Origin: Ryuthela nishihirai
Lineage: Eukaryota; Arthropoda; Arachnida; Araneae; Heptathelidae
DNA length: 64,000 bases
Direction: 5' to 3'
Assembly (NCBI GenBank): GCA_038380435.1
Contig: JAWZYU010000025.1
Span: 51,654,691 to 51,718,690, forward strand
The notes below the pieces were generated by a model that saw only the letters and a program-made list of their open reading frames with translations, did not search any database and had not been told where the DNA came from. Numbering within the stretch: the first letter of the stretch is position 1; each line of letters opens with the position of its first letter. The position numbers were made by a program, and so were the translations under genes. Of the stretch, positions 25,961 to 63,354 are shown in pieces.

Positions 25961-28035
25961 GTTGGGTTATTCAAATTCTGAATTGTTTCGCAAGTAATGG
26001 GCTAAATAGCAGGTCACAAGTACCCCCATGGCATCAGAAAAGGTTAGGAATGGTCCACTGGGACGCTATTAGGAGAGATGGAAGGATGCTGTCGAGGCCA
26101 TGCAATGTGGCCTTTAAAGTGCACAAGGTATGGGCCGCTATTAGGAGAGATGGAAGGATGCTGTCGAGGCCATGCAATGTGGCCTTTAAAGTGCACAAGG
26201 TATGGGCCGCTATTAGAAGAGATGGAAGGATGCTGTCGAGGCCATGCAATGTGGCCTTTAAAGTGCACAAGGTATGGGCCGCTATTAGGTGAGATGGAAG
26301 GATGCTGTCGAGGCCATGCAATGTGGCCTTTAAAGTGCACAAGGTATGGGCCGCTATTAGGAGAGATGGAAGGATGCTGTCGAGGCCATGCAATGTGGCC
26401 TTTAAAGTGCACAAGGTATGGGCCGCTATTAGGAGAGATGGAAGGATGCTGTCGAGGCCATGCAATGTGGCCTTTAAAGTGCACAAGGTATGGGCCGCTA
26501 TTAGGTGAGATGGAAGGAAGCTGTCGAGGCCATGCAATGTGGCCTTTAAAGTGCACAAGGTATGGGCCGCTATTAGGTGAGATGGAAGGATGCTGTCGAG
26601 GCCATGCAATGTGGCCTTTAAAGTGCACAAGGTATGGGCCGCTATTAGGTGAGATGGAAGGATGCTGTCGAGGCCATGCAATGTGGCCTTTAAAGTGCAC
26701 AAGGTATGGGCCGCTATTAGGAGAGATGGAAGGATGCTGTCGAGGCCATGCAATGTGGCCTTTAAAGTGCACAAGGTATGGGCCGCTATTAGGTGAGATG
26801 GAAGGATGCTGTCGAGGCCATGCAATGTGACCCTTAAAGTGCACAAGGTATGGGTCGCTATTAGGAGAGATGGAAGGATGCTGTCGAGGACAGGCAATGT
26901 GGCCCTTAAAGTGCACAAGGTATGGGCCGCTATTAGGAGAGATGGAAGGATGCTGTCGAGGCCATGCAATGTGGCCTTTAAAGTGCACAAGGTATGGGCC
27001 GCTATTAGGAGAGATGGAAGGATGCTGTCGAGGCCATGTAATGTGGCCTTTAAAGTGCACAAGGTATGGGCCGCTATTAGGAGAGATGGAAGGATGCTGT
27101 CGAGGCCATGCAATGTGGCCTTTAAAGTGCACAAGGTATGGGCCGCTATTAGGAGAGATGGAAGGATGCTGTCGAGGCCATGCAATGTGGCCTTTAAAGT
27201 GCACAAGGTATGGGCCGCTATTAGAAGAGATGGAAGGATGCTGTCGAGGCCATGCAATGTGGCCTTTAAAGTGCACAAGGTATGGGCGCTATTAGGAGAG
27301 ATGGAAGGATGCTGTCGAGGCCATGCAATGTGGCCTTTAAAGTGCACAAAGTATGGGCCGCTATTAGGAGAGATGGAAGGATGCTGTCGAGGCCATGCAA
27401 TGTGGCCTTTAAAGTGCACAAGGTATGGGCCGCTATTAGGAGAGATGGGAGGATGCTGTCGAGGCCATGCAATGTGGCCTTTAAAGTGCACAAGGTATGG
27501 GCCGCTATTAGGAGAGATGGGAGGATGCTGTCGAGGCCATGCAATGTGGCCTTTAAAGTGCACAAGGTATGGGCCGCTATTAGGAGAGATGGAAGGATGC
27601 TGTCGAGGCCATGCAATGTGGCCTTTAAAGTGCACAAGGTATGGGCCGCTATTAGGAGAGATGGGAGGATGCTGTCGAGGCCATGCAATGTGGCCTTTAA
27701 AGTGCACAAGGTATGGGCCGCTATTAGGAGAGATGGAAGGATGCTGTCGAGGCCATGCAATGTGGCCTTTAAAGTGCACAAGGTATGGGCCGCTATTAGG
27801 AGAGATGGAAGGATTCTGTCGAGGCCAGGCAATGTGGCCTTTAAAGTGCACAAGGTATGGCCTTTCTACACATTGGACCTGTCTTAAAATTCCACCGGAA
27901 GGACGCCTTCCTAGTTCATCGGTGTTTACTTTCTCATCAAGGACAGGGTGGAGGTTAGAACAGAAAATTCTGAAACTCAGAAACAGTTGGGACTCGAACC
28001 TGGGAACTGAAGATTACGAGCCTGGCGCGCTACCA
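25961..28035 (-). mobile_element. SINE-A inflated by an internal minisatellite
   Basis: Left (plus strand) is a SINE tail and adjoining body (GGTTGGGTTATTC, AATGGGCTAAATAGCAGGTC, GGTCCACTGGGACG). Right is the rest of the body and head (GGGACTCGAACCTGGG, GATTACGAGCCTGGCGCGC). Between them the region corresponding to CTGTTGGGAGACAGATGG to GTGCACAGGGTATGG of a normal copy is replaced by a 1.8-kb array. The outer parts are diverged and show no TSD. Confidence 0.88.
26064..27862. repeat. Minisatellite, 25 units of 72 bp, derived from SINE-A
   Basis: Each unit begins CGCTATTAGGAGAGATGGAA and ends AAGTGCACAAGGTATGGGC. The period is exactly 72 bp except one 71-bp unit near 27,285 (TATGGGCGC). Variants sort by position: AGGTGAG in units 4, 7, 8, 9 and 11, AGAAGAG in units 3 and 17, GATGGGAGG in units 20, 21 and 23. 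Units 11 and 12 and the last carry extra substitutions. Because 72 is divisible by 3, frames stay open through many units on both strands (up to 605 residues); these are not genes. Confidence 0.96.
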
Positions 28036-50005: not shown

Positions 50006-50393
50006 TGGGGTGGCTCAGTCGGTAGCGCGCCAGGCTCGTAATCTGTAGTTCCCAGGTTCGAGTCCCAGCTGGGTCAGCGTTGAGATTTATCTCCGCAAAA
50101 TTCCCCGCCCTGCCCACGGTCAGTAGGGGACACCGATGGGCTTGGAAAGGCCGCCGTCTGTCGGATGGGACGTTAAGCCGTGGTCCCGTGTGCGGGAGAG
50201 ACATACCCTGTGCACGTTAAAGAACACGTTGGATGGCCTTGACGGAAGGCTACCATCTGTCTCCCAACAGCTGTTCCAGTGGGTCCCCTCCCCCAACCTT
50301 CTCTGAGCCTTCGGGGTCCATGTGACCTGGCCATTTAGCCCATGTTGTGCAAAAAAGTGCCGCTCAAAGGTAAAACAACCCAAATCTGTTTGA
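50006..50393 (+). mobile_element. SINE-A, full length
   Basis: Starts ATGGGGTGGCTCAGTCGG and ends AGGTAAAACAACCCAAA. A and B boxes are intact. I see no convincing TSD. Confidence 0.92.
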
Positions 50394-51738: not shown

Positions 51739-52170
51739 AGATCTCTTGATCAGAGATAAGAATAAACAATTGCACTTGTGCAAGTTCTTTGGTCTTGTGA
51801 AAGATCATGGAGGAAGGAAAGCAGAAACTAGGAGCAGATATTTTTAGTCTTAAGGTCAAAGAAAATAATAAAGGAGCTAGGGGGTGGGCGTCAAGGAATT
51901 CATATACAGTGAACTCTTGATTTAACGGATTAATGGGGAAGGAGGTATCCGTTAAATGCAAATGTTTACATGACAATGAATGAATATATTGTTACGACAG
52001 AAGGAATCTGGCAACCAAAAGCAAAGTTTCAGCCAACGAATAAGAACTTTGGGAGAATTTGGAGAAGAAGAGTGGAGCGTTAACGGTCGTTTTGTATTGT
52101 AACGGTCGTTGTGTTGTAACGGTCGGAGAGTTCGAAAATGGACGGTGAGCTGTTCTGAGACAGTGCGCGT

Positions 52171-52304
52171 AAGTATCAAGAAGTAACTTGATGTGTTGTG
52201 TATACGCGGAAGGATAAAAGTGGGATCTTTTATCGTTAAGTATCAAGAAGTAACTTGATGTGTTGTGTATACACGGAAGTATAAAAGTGGGAACTTTTAT
52301 GGCT
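52171..52304 (+). repeat. 67-bp tandem duplication within the LTR
   Basis: AAGTATCAAGAAGTAACTTG begins both units (52,171 and 52,238). Each ends in a TATA-like stretch and an ACTTTTAT/TCTTTTAT word. The same structure is in the right LTR at 55,735-55,868, so it predates this insertion. Confidence 0.92.
52280..52287 (+). promoter_or_regulatory. Probable LTR TATA box
   Basis: TATAAAAG in the second 67-bp unit; the first unit has the weaker GATAAAAG at 52,213-52,220. It would place the RNA start about 25-30 bp downstream. The right-LTR equivalent is at 55,844-55,851. Confidence 0.6.
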
Positions 52305-52633
52305 AACTTCGAATGTCTACACGGACTGTCTTTTTGTTCGGCTAGTGTGTGAACAGTTGTTAGCACAGGACGAGAATTGGTTTACGGGTGAAGATCTTCG
52401 GGTGACCTGGTAAATCAAGTAAAAGGTAGTATTTAGTAAAATACACAGAGCTGATATTGTGCGCTCTACGCAGGAAGATTGATGACTTGTGCATGTTAAT
52501 AGTTGATTTGTTAATAAGATACTTCATCCATATTTCCTTTGTAACAATTTACCTTGTATTGAATTTGGTTTTGAAATATAGCTTTTAATACTCACGCTCA
52601 GTGGCTATCCATTTTTTTGAAATTCGCAACATT

Positions 52634-52651
52634 TGGTGTCAGAAGCGGGAT
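52634..52651 (+). promoter_or_regulatory. Primer binding site (tRNA-Leu-like)
   Basis: TGGTGTCAGAAGCGGGAT, two bases after the LTR, starts with TGG (complement of CCA) and resembles the complement of the 3' end of animal tRNA-Leu. It would prime minus-strand DNA synthesis. Confidence 0.85.
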
Positions 52652-52661
52652 AATTTATTGA

Positions 52662-55607
52662 ATGCCGTTAACTAGAAGTATGGATGAATTAGTAAAGTTG
52701 ATAAATAGCTTGAAAGCCGATATGAAAGATATGAAAGCCGATATGGCTGCGCTGACTGATATGAAAGCCGATATGGCTGCGCTGATGACTGATAGGAAAG
52801 CCATTATTGCTACGCTGATGACTGATAGGAAAGCCGTTATTGCTACGCTGATGACTGATAGGAAAGCTGTTATTGCTACGCTGGTGACTGATATGAAAGC
52901 CGATATGGTTACGCAGATGACTGATATTAAAAGTGATCTAGCTGCCCAAAGCGATAAAATAGGTGACTTGAAAGCCGAAATGGCCGCACAAAATACTGAG
53001 ATGAGAGATGAAGTGGCTCCTCAAGTTGGTAAGATTATTGATCAGTTCAAGGATCATAAAACCGAACTCAATAGACAATGCAATAGTTTAAATGTTGAAT
53101 TTGTCAGTGAAAAAGATGATCTTGATAGTGTTAAGTTAGATTGTAAACATGGAAAAGAAAAAGAGAAAGGCAACGCATATAAAAATGTGGATCTGCTACT
53201 GGAAATCAAGAATCGTAGAGATAGCGCAGATAATGCCTTTGACCACGCAACTACTGGTGATGCATGGCAGAATGTCTATGTCGCTGGTGACATGTCTAGG
53301 AACTGTGAAGAACAATCACACAGATCAGAGAGCTGTGAGACTATACAGTACGCTTTGCACTTCAAAATACCTAGGTATACAAGTCTGGCACGATCTGAAG
53401 AGAGATCCACACGAAAGGTATTCTATTCCTCGCCGTCAGCAAAATGCGTCATGGACAATTATCGCAAAGGCAGAGTAACGAGTGGTAATGAAGGGGAACG
53501 AAACAGAGTTTACGTTTCGCAGAGTGGTCCGAGTAAAGAAGAGGCGTCCATTCATCATAGATACAAAGTGCCCTTCGTCGTTACCAGGGAAGTCGGAGAG
53601 ATTTTTCCGAAGCATATAGCCACACTTGAATCGTTTATAGAAAGTGGGGATTTAAGGAAGAGGAATTCCGAAGAATGGCTTAGAAGCATAACAGGTGATG
53701 CTAGTAAAAGAGCTTCAGGCAGAGACGGTACTTCAAAGACTAACTTTCTGGATGAAACTAAGCCTCAGAGTTACGATCAGAGAGAAGTAAAGCCCTCAGA
53801 CAATCTCAACGAAACCATGCTGAATTTCTTTTCTGAACAGTCAATGTGCAGATTTGGACATTATAACCATTTAGATTATAAGGATATAGAAAAGTTTTAT
53901 CACGATTACAAGAGCTCTAAAGTGGACAATATCATGTTACAGAACTCGTCGCTGATCTCCAGAATGGACAATTTGGCAATCATGACTGATATGTCCCTGG
54001 CTAATTACAATGAGAGCTCCAAGAAAGTGAATTCGGAAGAAACAGCAAATATGACCTCCTCGGGTCATGTGTTTTGCTGGAGACCCGAGTGGCGCCATCG
54101 GATGGTAGATAAAAACAGCACAGGAGGTGTCGGCAACAAAGTGAGTTTTGTCTTGGCTCCTGCACTTGCTGCTTTAGGTCTCAAGGTCCCTATGATCTCC
54201 GGTCGTGCTCTCCAATTGACGGGAGATACTCTGGACAAATTGGAATCCATCCCTGGCTTCACAGTCGACTGCACTAAAGATAAAATCGAGCAGATGATGG
54301 AAGACGTCGGATGCTGCATCGTAGGACAGACAGAGGAGCTGGTGCCAACAGATAAGGAGATTTACCGCTGCAAGGATCTGATGGCTACCATAGATAGCGT
54401 TCCTCTAATGATATGCTCAATTGTGTCCAAAAAGCTGGCTGAAGGAGTGTGTGCTTTAGTTTATGATGTTGAATTCAGAAAAGGAGCTATTGATCTCATC
54501 AGTACAGAAGATGTTGCTGTTGATTTAGTTAAGAAAGTGGTTGCAGCATCACAAGCTCGTGGAATGAAGAGTTTGAGTTGTTCAGCTGTTATCAGCAACA
54601 TGGATTCACCTCTTGAAAACTCTGTTGACAACTCTCTGGAAGTGATGGAAGCTGTTCAGTGTTTCCTTGGTAACGGATCCTTGGAACTGCAAGAGCTAGT
54701 CGAAGAGTTAGGAGGAGAACTTCTGCGTTTGGTGAACATTGTGGATAATAGGGTAGATGAAGCATCACGTGTCTGCAAGGTTCTGCATAACGGCAATGCT
54801 TTGAACAAGTTTCATAACATGTTAATAGAACAAGGAGTATCTGAAGATGTTGCAAGCTGGCTATGTGAAGGTAAAACAGAAAAAATATTGCTAGCAGCCC
54901 GACACATCACTGATTTCACTTATACAGGAGAAACAGGTAAGGTTGTCGGATTAGAAGCTGCAATTCTAGCAAGAGTATGGAAGGAGGAGATGGACCGAAG
55001 AGCTAAAAAGAATTATGGAGCTGATATTATATTTGTGAAGCACCTTGGGGATCAAATGGAATCAGGTGAAATATGGCTGAAGGTTCATCACGACAGTTCT
55101 GAATTAAGGGAAAGTCAACTGACAAAAGGGTCAGACTGGAGGATGAAACTCCTCCCTAGATTTTATGTCACTAATGACTTTCATTCCTTGTTACTGTTGA
55201 TAGAAGTAAAAATCCAAAGAAGAAAACTTTCGACAAAGAAGAAAACTTTTTACAGGTTTTGCACGAAAACTCTTAGTCGATTCTTCTCCCTGCAGAGACA
55301 TAAACGTGTTCACAAGGGCTATAGGCCTTACACGTATTATGTTTGTGGACGAGGCTTCAGTCAGAAAAGAAATCTACGTCATAATGAGATTCGCTTTCAT
55401 TTTGACACAGACGTGGTATATCGCATTCGTCGATGTCCAGCTACAAAGTGCAAGGTGGTTCACGTGGATCGTTTGGCCATGTTTCATCGAAGAACTGAAG
55501 AAACTTTGGAATCCAGAATTGTTCGGGACGAACAAGACCTAGGAAGGGGGCAGTGTTACGACAGAAGGAATCTGGCAACCAAAAGCAAAGTTTCAGCCAA
55601 CGAATAA
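52662..55607 (+). CDS. Gag-like / thymidine phosphorylase / zinc finger / Pol C-terminus fusion protein
   Basis: 981 codons without a stop. The start MPLTRSMDELVKL, 31 bp after the LTR, is typical of arthropod gypsy Gag proteins. Residues 15-100 are coiled coil with an 11-residue repeat (LMTDRKAVIAT). Residues about 110-460 are unrecognised. Residues about 464-820 are thymidine phosphorylase. Key E. coli active-site positions align with a constant offset of 400: K484, S486, S495, S513, T523, S586 and K590 are kept, His85 is N485 and Arg171 is K571. The family signature (SGRALQLTGDTLDKLE, 513-528) has one mismatch, D522 for Gly. Residues 864-913 are two degenerate C2H2 fingers. Residues 918-941 (VVYRIRRCPATKCKVVHVDR and on) match the end of gypsy Pol; the stop lies in the 3' LTR. 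The TP part has no introns, as expected if captured from mRNA. Activity is uncertain. Confidence 0.92.
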   Translation: MPLTRSMDELVKLINSLKADMKDMKADMAALTDMKADMAALMTDRKAIIATLMTDRKAVIATLMTDRKAVIATLVTDMKADMVTQMTDIKSDLAAQSDKIGDLKAEMAAQNTEMRDEVAPQVGKIIDQFKDHKTELNRQCNSLNVEFVSEKDDLDSVKLDCKHGKEKEKGNAYKNVDLLLEIKNRRDSADNAFDHATTGDAWQNVYVAGDMSRNCEEQSHRSESCETIQYALHFKIPRYTSLARSEERSTRKVFYSSPSAKCVMDNYRKGRVTSGNEGERNRVYVSQSGPSKEEASIHHRYKVPFVVTREVGEIFPKHIATLESFIESGDLRKRNSEEWLRSITGDASKRASGRDGTSKTNFLDETKPQSYDQREVKPSDNLNETMLNFFSEQSMCRFGHYNHLDYKDIEKFYHDYKSSKVDNIMLQNSSLISRMDNLAIMTDMSLANYNESSKKVNSEETANMTSSGHVFCWRPEWRHRMVDKNSTGGVGNKVSFVLAPALAALGLKVPMISGRALQLTGDTLDKLESIPGFTVDCTKDKIEQMMEDVGCCIVGQTEELVPTDKEIYRCKDLMATIDSVPLMICSIVSKKLAEGVCALVYDVEFRKGAIDLISTEDVAVDLVKKVVAASQARGMKSLSCSAVISNMDSPLENSVDNSLEVMEAVQCFLGNGSLELQELVEELGGELLRLVNIVDNRVDEASRVCKVLHNGNALNKFHNMLIEQGVSEDVASWLCEGKTEKILLAARHITDFTYTGETGKVVGLEAAILARVWKEEMDRRAKKNYGADIIFVKHLGDQMESGEIWLKVHHDSSELRESQLTKGSDWRMKLLPRFYVTNDFHSLLLLIEVKIQRRKLSTKKKTFYRFCTKTLSRFFSLQRHKRVHKGYRPYTYYVCGRGFSQKRNLRHNEIRFHFDTDVVYRIRRCPATKCKVVHVDRLAMFHRRTEETLESRIVRDEQDLGRGQCYDRRNLATKSKVSANE
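54051..55130 (+). other. Captured thymidine phosphorylase segment
   Basis: Recognised from VDKNSTGGVGNKVS, APALAALGLKVPMISGR, TLDKLESIPGF, GCCIVGQTEELVPTDKEIY, ATIDSVPLM, SIVSKKLAEG and ALVYDV, in the right order and spacing for pyrimidine-nucleoside phosphorylases, which convert thymidine and phosphate to thymine and deoxyribose-1-phosphate. The C-terminal domain continues through GGELLRLVN and GNALNKFHNMLIEQGV to GEIWLKVHHDSSEL. The first ~70 residues of a normal enzyme (N-terminal alpha domain) are missing or unrecognisable. VEFRKGA (603-609) replaces the usual VKFGGAA/VKVGSGA. Confidence 0.93.
55250..55400 (+). other. Degenerate C2H2 zinc-finger pair in the fusion frame
   Basis: Finger 1: C867, L871, L877, H880 and H884 fit the C2H2 frame; the first cysteine position is Y864. 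A linker HKGYRPY follows. Finger 2: C895, F899, L905 and H913 fit; the first cysteine is Y892 and the first histidine position is N908 (H907 adjacent). Metal binding is doubtful. The KTLSRFFSLQRHKRVH and GFSQKRNLRH wording resembles Kruppel-type fingers, not a retroviral CCHC knuckle. Confidence 0.8.
55541..55553 (+). promoter_or_regulatory. Polypurine tract
   Basis: AGGAAGGGGGCAG lies immediately before the 3' LTR and would prime plus-strand synthesis. It overlaps the coding frame. Confidence 0.85.
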
Positions 55608-56193
55608 GAACTTTGGGAGAATTTGGAGAAGAAGAGTGGAGCGTTAACGGTCGTTTTGTATTGTAACGGTCGTTGTGTTGTAACGGTCGGAGAGTTCGAA
55701 AATGGACGGTGAGCTGTTCTGAGACAGTGCGCGTAAGTATCAAGAAGTAACTTGATGTGTTGTGTATACGCGGAAGGATAAAAGTGGGATCTTTTATCGT
55801 TAAGTATCAAGAAGTAACTTGATGTGTTGTGTATACACGGAAGTATAAAAGTGGGAACTTTTATGGCTAACTTCGAATGTCTACACGGACTGTCTTTTTG
55901 TTCGGCTAGTGTGTGAACAGTTATTAGCACAGGACGAGAATTGGTTTACGGGTGAAGATCTTCGGGTGACCTGGTAAATCAAGTAAAAGGTAGTATTTAG
56001 TAAAATACACAGAGCTGATATTGTGCGCTCTACGCAGGAAGATTGATGACTTGTGCATGTTAATAGTTGATTTGTTAATAAGATACTTCATCCATATTTC
56101 CTTTGTAACAATTTACCTTGTATTGAATTTGGTTTTGAAATATAGCTTTTAATACTCACGCTCAGTGGCTATCCATTTTTGTAATCCGCAACA
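55554..56193 (+). repeat. 3' long terminal repeat
   Basis: 640 bp, near-identical partner of 51,990-52,631. It holds the last 18 codons and stop of the fusion frame. Confidence 0.95.
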
Positions 56194-56387
56194 ATATGTT
56201 AAAATAACAGATTTCATAACCATATCTTATAATAAAAAACGCAGTAGTTTAGGAACATCGTTAACAGAATAATATATGTGTATCTAATGCCTGTAATAAC
56301 AATACAAACACTAAAATACTGTGCACAAAATTACATTTATAATCACCAATAAAATTATTTCATGATATTGGAAATATTAATGATATA

Positions 56388-56752
56388 AGTTGGGTTGTTT
56401 TACCTCTGAGCGGTACTTTTTTGCACCCCATGAGTTAAATGGCCAGATCACATGGACCCCGAAGGTTCAGAGAAGGTTGAGGGAGGGGACCCACTGGAAT
56501 AGCTGTTGGGAGATAGATGGTAGCCTCCAGTCAAGGCCATCCTGCGTGTTCTTTAACGTGCATAGGTTATGGCTCTCCCGCACACGGGGCCACGGCTTAA
56601 CGTCCCATTCCGACGGATGGCGGCTTTTCCAAGCCCATCGGTGTCCCCTACTGACCGTGGGCAGGGCGGGGAATTTTGCGAAGATAAATCTGAGCGCTGG
56701 CCCAGCAGGGACTCGAACCTGGGAACTACAGATTACGAGCCACCCCCGTCCC
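56388..56752 (-). mobile_element. SINE-A lacking the A-box part of the head
   Basis: Exact TSD ATTAATGATATA at 56,376-56,387 and 56,753-56,764. The head complement jumps from GATTACGAG to CCACCCCCGTCCC, deleting about 20 bp including the A box. Confidence 0.92.
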
Positions 56753-56764
56753 ATTAATGATATA

Positions 56765-57213
56765 GTGTTTGCTAAAATAGATTCAAATTTTTTTTAAGTT
56801 TCTAGAAACATTCTAACAAATATCAGAATATATATTTTGCTTAAAAGAATGGCTTTTTTTATTGCCGTAAAATTTCTTGCGTTTTAAGGCTCTACCATAT
56901 TCTAAATCAATTTTAGGCATATTTATTAAATTCCTAAAATTATAAGGAAAGTAATCTTCCTAACAAAGTGCAGTTCTTGGGTATAAAAGAAAACAAAAAA
57001 AATCCTATAAATCATTATCTCGAAATACTTCATCTGGCAGTTATTTCATAGAAATTATGTTACAAGAAATAGCAGAAATGTTCTCCTTCAAAACGGATGC
57101 AGGCTTCGGCTCATTGTAATAATGATGGTCGGATACGTCAAAGAGCTTGTTAAATTTTGACATACCTTCAAAGAGCTTGTTAAAATGTGATATACATTCA
57201 AAGATTTACCATT
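56765..57213. other. AT-rich stretch with a short direct repeat
   Basis: TCAAAGAGCTTGTTAAA is repeated at about 57,138 and 57,168. No gene is supported. Confidence 0.45.
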
Positions 57214-57215
57214 TG

Positions 57216-57530
57216 GGGTTGTTTTACCTCTGAGCGGCACTTTTTTGCACACCATGGGCTAAATGGCCAGGTCACAAGGACTCCCGAAGGCTCAGAGAAG
57301 GTTGGGGGAGGGAACCCACTGGAACAGTTGTTGAGAGACAAATGGTAGCCTCCCGTCAAGACCATCCAATGTGTTCTTTAACGTGCACAGGGTATGGCTC
57401 TCCCGTACACGGGGTCACGACTTAACGTCCCATCCGACGGACGGCGGCCTTTCCAAGCCCATCGGTGTCCCCTACTGACCTTGAACAGGGAGTTTTGCGA
57501 GATAAGTCTCAACGCTGGCCCAGCTGGGCG
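57216..57530 (-). mobile_element. SINE-A without tRNA head
   Basis: It runs from GGGGTTGTTTTACCTCTGAG to CTGGCCCAGCTGGGCGG and stops at the B-box position. No TSD is seen. Confidence 0.9.
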
Positions 57531-57877: not shown

Positions 57878-58263
57878 TGGATTGGATTGTTTTACCTCAG
57901 AGCGGCACTTTTTTGCACACCATGGGCTAAATGGCCAGGTCACATGGACCCCGAAGGCTCAGAGAAGGTTGGGGGAGGGGACCCACTGGAACAGCTGTTG
58001 GGAGACAGATGGTAGCCTCCCGTCAAGGCAACCAGCGTGTTCTTTAACGTGCACAGGGTATGACTCTGCCACACACGAGGCCACGGCTTAACGTCCCATC
58101 CGACGGACGGCTGCCTTTCCAAGTCCATCAGTTCCCCTACTGACCGAGGGCGGGGAATTTTGCGGAGATAAATCTGAACACCGATCCAGCTGGGACTCGA
58201 AACTGGGAACTACAGATTACGAGCCTGGCGCGCTACCGACTGAGCCACCCCCCCCCACCCCCC
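57878..58263 (-). mobile_element. SINE-A, full length
   Basis: Its tail is a GGATT repeat (GATTGGATTGGATTG), not the usual GGGTT. The box complements are present with one change (GGGACTCGAAACTGGG). No clear TSD. Confidence 0.91.
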
Positions 58264-62426: not shown

Positions 62427-62772
62427 GGAACGGAGTTGACTCAGTCGATATCGCTCCAGGCTCGTAATCTGCAGTTCCCAGATTTGAGATTTATCTCCGA
62501 TAATCCCCACCCTGCCGTCAGAAAAGGGGACACAAGTCCGCCGTCCGTCGTATGGGACGTAAAGCAGTGGGCGCATGTGTAGGAGACCCATACCCTGTGC
62601 ATGTTAAAAAACAAGCAGGATACCATCTATCTCCTAACAGCTGTCCAATGGATCTGCTTTAATCTTCTCTGAGCCCTCGGGGTCCTTGTCACCTGGCTTT
62701 TAGCCTATTGTGTGCAAAAAAAAGTGCCGATTAGAGGTAAAAACAACCCAAATTAAAAAAATTATTTATTAA
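62427..62772 (+). mobile_element. SINE-A, old copy whose tail is amplified
   Basis: The head is recognisable (TTGACTCAGTCGATATCGCT, AGGCTCGTAATCTGCAG) but the B box is damaged. The body is shortened. The 3' end runs directly into the tandem array below. Confidence 0.85.
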
Positions 62773-63354
62773 CCCTCGGGGTCCTTGTGACCTGGCTTTT
62801 AGCCTATTGTGTGCAAAAAAAGTGCCGATTAGAGGTAAAAACAACCCAAATTAAAAAAATTATTTATTAACCCTCGGGGTCCTTGTGACCTGGCTTTTAG
62901 CCTATTGTGTGCAAAAAAAGTGCCGATTAGAGGTAAAAACAACCCAAATTAAAAAATTATTTATTAACCCTCGGGATCCTTGTAACCTGGCTTTTAGCCT
63001 ATTGTGTGCAAAAAAAGTGCCGATTAGAGGTAAAAACAACCCAAATTAAAAAATTATTTATTAACCCTCGGGATCCTTGTGACCTGGCTTTTAGCCTATT
63101 GTGTGCAAAAAAAGTGCCGATTAGAGGTAAAAACAACCCAAATTAAAAAATTATTTATTAACCCTCGGGATCCTTGTAACCTGGCTTTTAGCCTATTGTG
63201 TGCAAAAAAAGTGCCGATTAGAGGTAAAAACAACCCAAATTAAAAAATTATTTATTAACCCTCGGGATCCTTGTAACCTGGCTTTTAGCCTATTGTGTGC
63301 AAAAAAAGTGCCGATTAGAGGTAAAAACAACCCAAATTAAAAAATTATTTATTT
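62674..63354 (+). repeat. Tandem array, 7 units of ~97 bp, from a SINE tail
   Basis: Unit starts (CCCTCGGG) at 62,674, 62,773, 62,871, 62,968, 63,065, 63,162 and 63,259. Each unit holds CCTTGTGACCTGGCTTTTAG, TGTGCAAAAAAAGTGCCG and AGAGGTAAAAACAACCCAAA, then an AT-rich spacer ending ATTATTTATTAA. Periods go from 99 to 98 to 97 bp. Later units share GGGATCC and GTAACC variants. Confidence 0.96.

What the first reader, a model, noticed from the sequence alone, without database searches (positions are those of the whole stretch)
51990..56193. A young LTR retrotransposon has transduced a thymidine phosphorylase coding sequence
Seen: LTRs, PBS, PPT and a 4-bp TSD bracket a single 981-codon frame whose centre is plainly thymidine phosphorylase. 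Known: LTR elements can transduce cellular mRNA (maize Bs1, acute transforming retroviruses); I know of none carrying thymidine phosphorylase. Inferred: the Pol core was exchanged for host cDNA, and the hybrid then transposed with trans-supplied enzymes, because both LTRs are nearly identical and the site duplication is intact. A nucleoside phosphorylase in a reverse-transcribing element recalls retroviral dUTPases and might affect thymidine pools, but that is speculation.
Basis: partly seen in the sequence, partly recalled or inferred. Interest (0 to 1): 0.96.

Follow-up and report, generated by a model that had tools for sequence, protein, structure and literature searches.

The report
Spider retrotransposon carrying decayed thymidine phosphorylase
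A jumping genetic element in a primitive segmented spider swallowed a gene for the enzyme thymidine phosphorylase and spread to more than a thousand places, apparently keeping the long protein-coding frame open while the enzyme's active site decayed.

Summary
In detail: 51990-56193 is a complete LTR element with a 4-bp target duplication and one 981-codon frame holding a thymidine phosphorylase (TP) core. It belongs to a large family: in the window's own genome (a liphistiid spider by COX1) two TP motif patterns hit 1,278 and 145 places. 19 of 20 other insertions examined have matching 4-bp duplications; their LTR pairs differ at 10 of 12,056 compared sites. A second class with the same LTR/PBS/PPT junctions (internal 4.9-5.1 kb, no TP match) carries, in the one copy read, a Ty3/gypsy integrase with at least 40 near-identical matches; it is the likely helper. 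The TP groups with spider TPs. It has no detectable N-terminal domain and has lost active-site residues (Arg in 68 of 68 loci, catalytic His in 38 of 67 readable), so phosphorolysis is unlikely. Indels that have spread keep the frame through Gag-TP (7 of 7 after merging neighbouring gaps, against 11 of 38 singletons) but not after it (0 of 3), while amino-acid change looks near neutral. Best reading: a trans-mobilised element whose open frame, not its enzyme chemistry, is selected. No donor TP gene was found. Transduction is known; this is an unusual variant.

The parts
51986..51989 (.). target-site duplication, left copy (ATAT)
   Evidence: sequence
51990..52631 (+). 5' LTR, 642 bp, TG...CA; holds a 67-bp tandem duplication at 52170-52300
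52634..52649 (+). primer-binding site (TGGTGTCAGAAGCGGG), assigned by position and sequence; the LTR/PBS junction 26-mer occurs 465 times exactly in the genome
52662..55607 (+). single 981-codon frame: Gag-like N terminus, unassigned middle, TP core, finger remnant, integrase tail, running 54 nt into the 3' LTR
52728..52931 (+). 33-bp coding repeat (coiled-coil-like by eye); this stretch aligns poorly or with gaps in many copies
53073..54023 (+). Gag-like or unassigned segment; no relative found in one protein search (candidates of 330-1050 aa); two copies (L039, L058) carry 128 more codons here, in frame
54024..55130 (+). thymidine phosphorylase without a detectable N-terminal helical domain; substitutions at near-invariant positions
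55287..55364 (+). C2H2 zinc-finger remnant, possibly a second transduced fragment
   Evidence: zf-H2C2_2 E 4.3e-6, below its curated cut-off
55410..55478 (+). tail of a Ty3/gypsy integrase (Integrase_p58_C)
   Evidence: E 1e-6, above its cut-off
55541..55553 (+). polypurine tract (AGGAAGGGGGCAG); the PPT/LTR junction 22-mer occurs 2,848 times exactly
55554..56193 (+). 3' LTR, 640 bp
56194..56197 (.). target-site duplication, right copy (ATAT)

Best explanation
A non-autonomous derivative of an active Ty3/gypsy family in a liphistiid spider. Shown: most of gag-pol is replaced by a spider-type TP sequence; its LTR/PBS and PPT/LTR junctions are the same as those of a class with longer internal regions, one copy of which has an open integrase frame over the 600 nt read; the TP form has spread recently to more than a thousand places. 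Shown on a sample of 68 other copies: indels that have spread keep the reading frame through Gag-TP but not after it, no stop codon is shared there, and amino-acid changes arise at about the neutral rate while TP active-site residues are lost. Inferred: the gag-pol class supplies Gag, reverse transcriptase and integrase in trans; RNAs with a long open frame are the better templates (translated in cis, not degraded as premature-stop RNA, or making a fusion protein whose length or fold matters), so stops and frameshifts are purged although the enzyme is not maintained.
For: Copies. Recent mobility: 19 of 20 other insertions with matching 4-bp TSDs; 14 of 20 LTR pairs without a mismatch, 10 mismatches in 12,056 sites (476-658 sites compared per pair). 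Partner: on C1 up to 85.35 Mb, 25 of 28 exact PBS junctions pair with an exact PPT junction; 18 have internal 2.44-2.95 kb (13 with a TP match), 7 have 4.94-5.12 kb (0 with a TP match). 600 nt of one long copy are open in one frame, Integrase_H2C2 E 1.5e-19 and rve E 1.6e-12, with 40 matches printed at 100% (capped). Frame: after merging neighbouring gaps, shared indels in 53073-55127 are 7 in-frame and 0 out, singletons 11 and 27 (p 0.0007); after TP shared 0 in-frame and 3 out. Without the 29 copies picked by TP score: 5 and 0 against 9 and 24, p 0.004. Shared stops 0 against 5.7 expected, p 0.0035 for the three pieces together. Near-neutral amino-acid change: shared omega 0.95 (Gag-like) and 1.33 (TP core), neither different from 1. 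Decay: 67 of 83 near-invariant residues kept; the lowest of 117 TPs keeps 79 of 84.
Against: Without merging neighbouring gaps one shared frame-breaking indel appears (54317, L090 and L054). Frames are not always intact: 61 of 150 matches of a TP N-end query have open frames under 870 aa. The shared-stop test includes copies picked for TP score, and no single piece is significant alone (p 0.095, 0.42, 0.077). Singleton stops are near expectation (10 against 13.0), as they should be after insertion, but they give no support. Only seven shared indel events; recombination between copies would make them less independent. Only 600 nt of one partner copy were read; its Gag and RT were not seen. In 53820-54110 single changes give omega 0.40 (p 0.001), so constraint is not absent everywhere.
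Confidence: 0.62

Rival explanations
1. A passenger in a young burst: TP is inert cargo, and frames are open only because the copies have not had time to decay.
For: Omega near 1 in the Gag-like part and TP core; active-site residues lost; LTR pairs nearly identical; 61 of 150 matches have shortened frames.
Against: Copies differ from the window copy by 0.8-4.6% in the TP part, yet shared indels are all in-frame after merging, against mostly frame-breaking singletons, and shared stops are 0 against 5.7 expected.
Confidence: 0.25
2. The element uses TP enzyme activity, as dUTPases serve some retroelements, by altering thymidine pools.
For: TP sequence runs nearly complete beyond its N-terminal domain; 67 of 83 near-invariant residues remain; 29 of 68 loci keep the catalytic His, some of them recently spread.
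Against: In the 68 loci Arg of LYxxRD is Lys (67) or Asn (1), Lys of VKFG is Glu (68), both Gly of PLGxxIGNS are changed (68), and TGGT reads TGDT in all 67 readable; 37 of 68 have Asn for His and for Asp. One further copy keeps TGGT. No N-terminal domain; TP core omega not below 1.
Confidence: 0.05
3. Assembly artefact or chance juxtaposition of LTRs, TP and finger parts.
For: Repeats in the neighbourhood; some copies lie in tandem arrays.
Against: The same arrangement at other places with their own TSDs; 1,423 motif places.
Confidence: 0.01
4. TP came from another arachnid by horizontal transfer of the element, not from this spider's own gene.
For: No conventional TP gene was found in this genome.
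Against: Element TP is sister to a group of five named spiders and three unnamed sources, with horseshoe crabs outside (98/95, 91/89), the place expected for a liphistiid host.
Confidence: 0.1

Closest known systems
Maize Bs1 (LTR retrotransposon with transduced host genes; named in PMC7264820, part 1 of 3 of the text read)
   Same: LTR element with host coding sequence in the internal region; needs enzymes in trans (recalled)
   Different: [quoted passage not shown] here 1,423 motif places, in an animal, with the likely partner identified
Acute transforming retroviruses (recalled)
   Same: Gag fused in frame to a cellular gene that replaces pol; helper-dependent
   Different: Here endogenous copies in the genome; the cellular part has lost active-site residues
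Bdelloid LTR retrotransposons with ORF3 enzymes or dUTPase (PMC5408684, abstract read)
   Same: Animal LTR elements that took up enzyme genes
   Different: There the extra ORF accompanies gag and pol; here TP stands in place of most of gag-pol
Large non-autonomous LTR derivatives such as LARDs, Dasheng or BARE-2 (recalled)
   Same: Share LTR, PBS and PPT with an autonomous partner that outfits them
   Different: LARD-like elements usually lack a long kept coding frame (recalled); here the frame through Gag-TP is kept in spreading lineages

Membership tests
Ty3/gypsy LTR retrotransposon | paired LTRs TG...CA, short fixed TSD, PBS after the 5' LTR, purine tract before the 3' LTR | tested here: met
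   window copy and 19 of 20 others with 4-bp TSDs
Ty3/gypsy LTR retrotransposon | pol order with integrase after RT and RNase H | not tested
Ty3/gypsy LTR retrotransposon | gypsy-type integrase (H2C2 finger, rve core) in the family | tested here: met
   partner copy L097; integrase tail in the window
non-autonomous derivative of an autonomous LTR family | same LTR/PBS/PPT junctions as a pol-bearing element, no own pol | tested here: met
   completeness of the partner's pol not tested
transduced host gene | sequence of cellular origin within an otherwise retroviral frame | tested here: met
transduced host gene | donor gene with introns identified | tested here: not met
   not found; this does not prove loss
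active thymidine phosphorylase | near-invariant active-site residues present | tested here: not met
   (catalytic roles recalled)
active thymidine phosphorylase | N-terminal helical domain PF02885 | tested here: not met

The most novel reading that the evidence does not exclude
The element is selected for having a translatable frame rather than for any protein sequence: stops and frameshifts are purged during spread, amino acids drift near neutrally, and a dead enzyme serves as an open-frame filler that keeps the RNA translated, stable or packaged. On this reading a captured host gene is useful to a retrotransposon as a long open frame, and the host may have lost its own TP, leaving element copies as the only TP-like sequences in the genome.
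Probability: 0.33. Interest if true: 0.85.

Novelty: new variant of a known kind. Interest (0 to 1): 0.7.

Why it matters
Transduced host genes in LTR elements are described (for plants) as present in one or a few copies. Here one has spread to more than a thousand places in an animal genome, the likely helper is identified, and copies differ in which active-site residues remain while the frame through Gag-TP stays open in spreading lineages. That makes it possible to ask what a non-autonomous retroelement needs from a coding frame.

Tried and rejected
Homology of 53820-54023 to the TP N-terminal domain, first suggested by a MAFFT alignment, was tested and rejected: no BLASTP alignment, no Pfam PF02885, no clear score above shuffles for any of 10 chelicerate-side TPs (best 36 of 300 shuffles as high). 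Protein relatives of the first 450 residues: none at E <= 0.01 among 8,000 candidates of limited length. Donor TP gene: the N-end query gave 150 matches (capped); the 30 fetched are all element copies, the other 120 were not read. TGGTLDKLE pattern: one place, an element copy. QIGA pattern: 0. Pfam PF02885: two adjacent matches at one place, a GC-rich trpD-like fragment by eye; its 14 control genomes are prokaryotes, so no animal control. HSTGGVGDK pattern: 145 places; those listed have element-type codons, the list is cut. One TP-less PBS site (L096, 1,500 nt read) shows an element 3' end at 80-90% identity and no long frame. Of 53 PBS junctions examined, 29 have no TP match within 0.6-3.2 kb; seven are the long class, the rest are unexplained or have diverged motifs. 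A tree of copies needs 4-5 changes between His and Asn and is poorly resolved. Copies with His are not simply the older ones: L045-L048 are identical in the compared stretch. Papers: PMC7264820 (part 1 of 3), PMC5408684 (abstract), PMC11646306 (passages and section 14); others seen as search listings only. (3 papers in all, off topic by title) gave no report of TP in a retroelement, within the open-licence library only.

Full report
What is there. The window's element runs from 51990 to 56193: two LTRs of 642 and 640 bp (640 sites compared, 3 mismatches, 1 indel), ATAT on both flanks, a PBS-like site after the 5' LTR and a purine tract before the 3' LTR. One frame of 981 codons fills it. In order it holds a coiled-coil-like repeat, a segment with no relative found, a TP core from about 54024 to 55130, a C2H2-finger remnant and a short integrase tail. 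The TP N-terminal helical domain is not detectable.

Where it is. The window lies in a 3.11 Gb assembly of 1,680 contigs. COX1 from that assembly is 93% identical to Songthela, a liphistiid spider, with Limulus next at 88%. Size and scaffold lengths resemble those printed for Ryuthela nishihirai (3.1 Gbp, scaffold N50 75.5 Mbp; PMC11646306); naming that species is an inference. In a tree of 37 TPs the element's TP lies in the chelicerate clade (98/95), sister to five named spiders and three unnamed sources (91/89), on the longest end branch, 1.22 against a median of 0.32. A donor in this spider's own lineage fits.

How many and how young. Patterns for the NSTGGVGNK and HSTGGVGDK forms hit 1,278 and 145 places exactly; reversed controls hit 0. 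A protein search with the TP part returned 105 matches (capped), 103 of 105 without stops; that set is chosen by score. A 91-residue N-end query returned 150 matches (capped), 89 with open frames of 870 aa or more. For 20 of the 29 other TP loci I fetched the 5' side: 19 of 20 have matching 4-bp duplications, and LTR pairs differ at 10 of 12,056 sites, 14 of 20 at none. In the TP part, copies differ from the window copy by 0.8-4.6%. For the dated copies, divergence between copies thus greatly exceeds that between their own LTRs, and most of it arose in lineages that kept transposing.

How it could move. Exact LTR/PBS and PPT/LTR junctions occur 465 and 2,848 times. On C1 and the first 65.8 Mb of C2, 24 of 53 PBS junctions have a TP match 0.6-3.2 kb downstream. 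On C1 up to 85.35 Mb, 25 of 28 PBS junctions pair with a PPT junction: 18 with internal 2.44-2.95 kb, 13 of these with a TP match, and 7 with internal 4.94-5.12 kb, none with a TP match. 600 nt of one long copy are one open frame with Integrase_H2C2 (1.5e-19) and rve (1.6e-12); 40 matches (capped) are printed at 100% over 600 of 600. The five of these on C1 below 87.6 Mb each lie about 1.23 kb before an exact PPT junction (my subtraction of coordinates). This long class is the likely supplier of enzymes in trans; its Gag and RT were not read.

What became of TP. The element keeps 67 of 83 near-invariant residues (2 of the 16 misses are gaps at the start), while the lowest of 117 TPs keeps 79 of 84. 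Across 68 loci (the window copy is in twice, and L064/L065 are duplicates), Arg of LYxxRD is Lys in 67 and Asn in 1, Lys of VKFG is Glu in 68, and TGGT reads TGDT in all 67 readable; the catalytic His is Asn in 37, Tyr in 1, His in 29, unreadable in 1. One further copy, found by its motif, reads TGGT. That this His and Arg are catalytic in human TP is recalled; their alignment is. Columns conserved in 98% or more of TPs match in 61 of 73 cases and columns under 50% in 18 of 125 (printed before an error ended), so TP-like constraint held for much of the branch and was lost later.

Frame without sequence. The window copy (L001, L009) and near-duplicates (L065, L091) were dropped, leaving 68 other copies. 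Indels shared by two or more copies within 53073-55127 are 7 in-frame and 0 frame-breaking after merging neighbouring gaps, against 11 and 27 among singletons (p 0.0007); past TP, shared indels are 0 in-frame and 3 frame-breaking, singletons 1 and 9. Without merging the Gag-TP count is 7 and 1 against 11 and 35 (p 0.0011). Leaving out the 29 copies picked by TP score gives 5 and 0 against 9 and 24, p 0.004. Shared stops in Gag-TP: 0 against 5.7 expected, p 0.0035; singleton stops 10 against 13.0. With a mutation spectrum taken from the LTRs, shared changes give omega 0.95 in the Gag-like part, 0.59 in 53820-54110, 1.33 in the TP core and 0.55 after TP, none different from 1; single changes give 0.93, 0.40 (p 0.001), 0.90 and 0.80 (the simpler pairwise estimate gave 0.87, 0.38, 1.60 and 1.00). 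Copies L039 and L058 hold 128 extra codons, in frame. The frame through Gag-TP is kept in spreading lineages while its amino acids mostly drift.

Reading. The element behaves as a helper-dependent retrotransposon that carries a cellular gene, like transforming retroviruses or Bs1 (recalled; Bs1 also in PMC7264820). What differs is scale, the young helper class beside it, and the separation of frame from function. The simplest mechanism is that long open frames make better templates in cis; a role for a non-catalytic fusion protein remains possible. Dating in years was not attempted.

Limits. The sample is 68 copies of about 1,400; shared events are few, the tree of copies is poorly resolved and copies probably recombine. 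Four ways of finding a donor TP gene failed, which may mean loss, short exons or limits of the searches.

Noticed in passing
G000 C1:30088316/30091743/30095170, C1:39962279/39965784, C237:16632/20036, C28:53531915/53535371, C25:7604858/7608295, C10:47713343/47716615: TP copies 3.3-3.5 kb apart in the same orientation, as expected of LTR-internal-LTR-internal-LTR tandem arrays.
   Followed up: no
G000 C16:11097750-11098149 (L098): GC-rich fragment resembling bacterial anthranilate phosphoribosyltransferase (trpD), split over two frames, inside a large spider scaffold: contamination or insertion (name by eye).
   Followed up: partly
window 26059-27860: 72-bp minisatellite, 25 copies, 97% matches, open in several frames.
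   Followed up: no
window 62674-63353: 97-bp tandem repeat, 7 copies; its unit resembles, by eye, part of the dispersed repeat seen near 50100 and 56390.
   Followed up: no
window 50007-50384, 56390-56741, 57213-57490, 57882-58251: Dispersed repeat, possibly a SINE, flanking the element in both orientations.
   Followed up: no
G000 C1500, C1526, C1535, C1557, C1585, C1414, C1436: Mitochondrial COX1 twice per contig, about 14.24-14.26 kb apart: duplicated mitochondrial contigs, plus many nuclear fragments.
   Followed up: no
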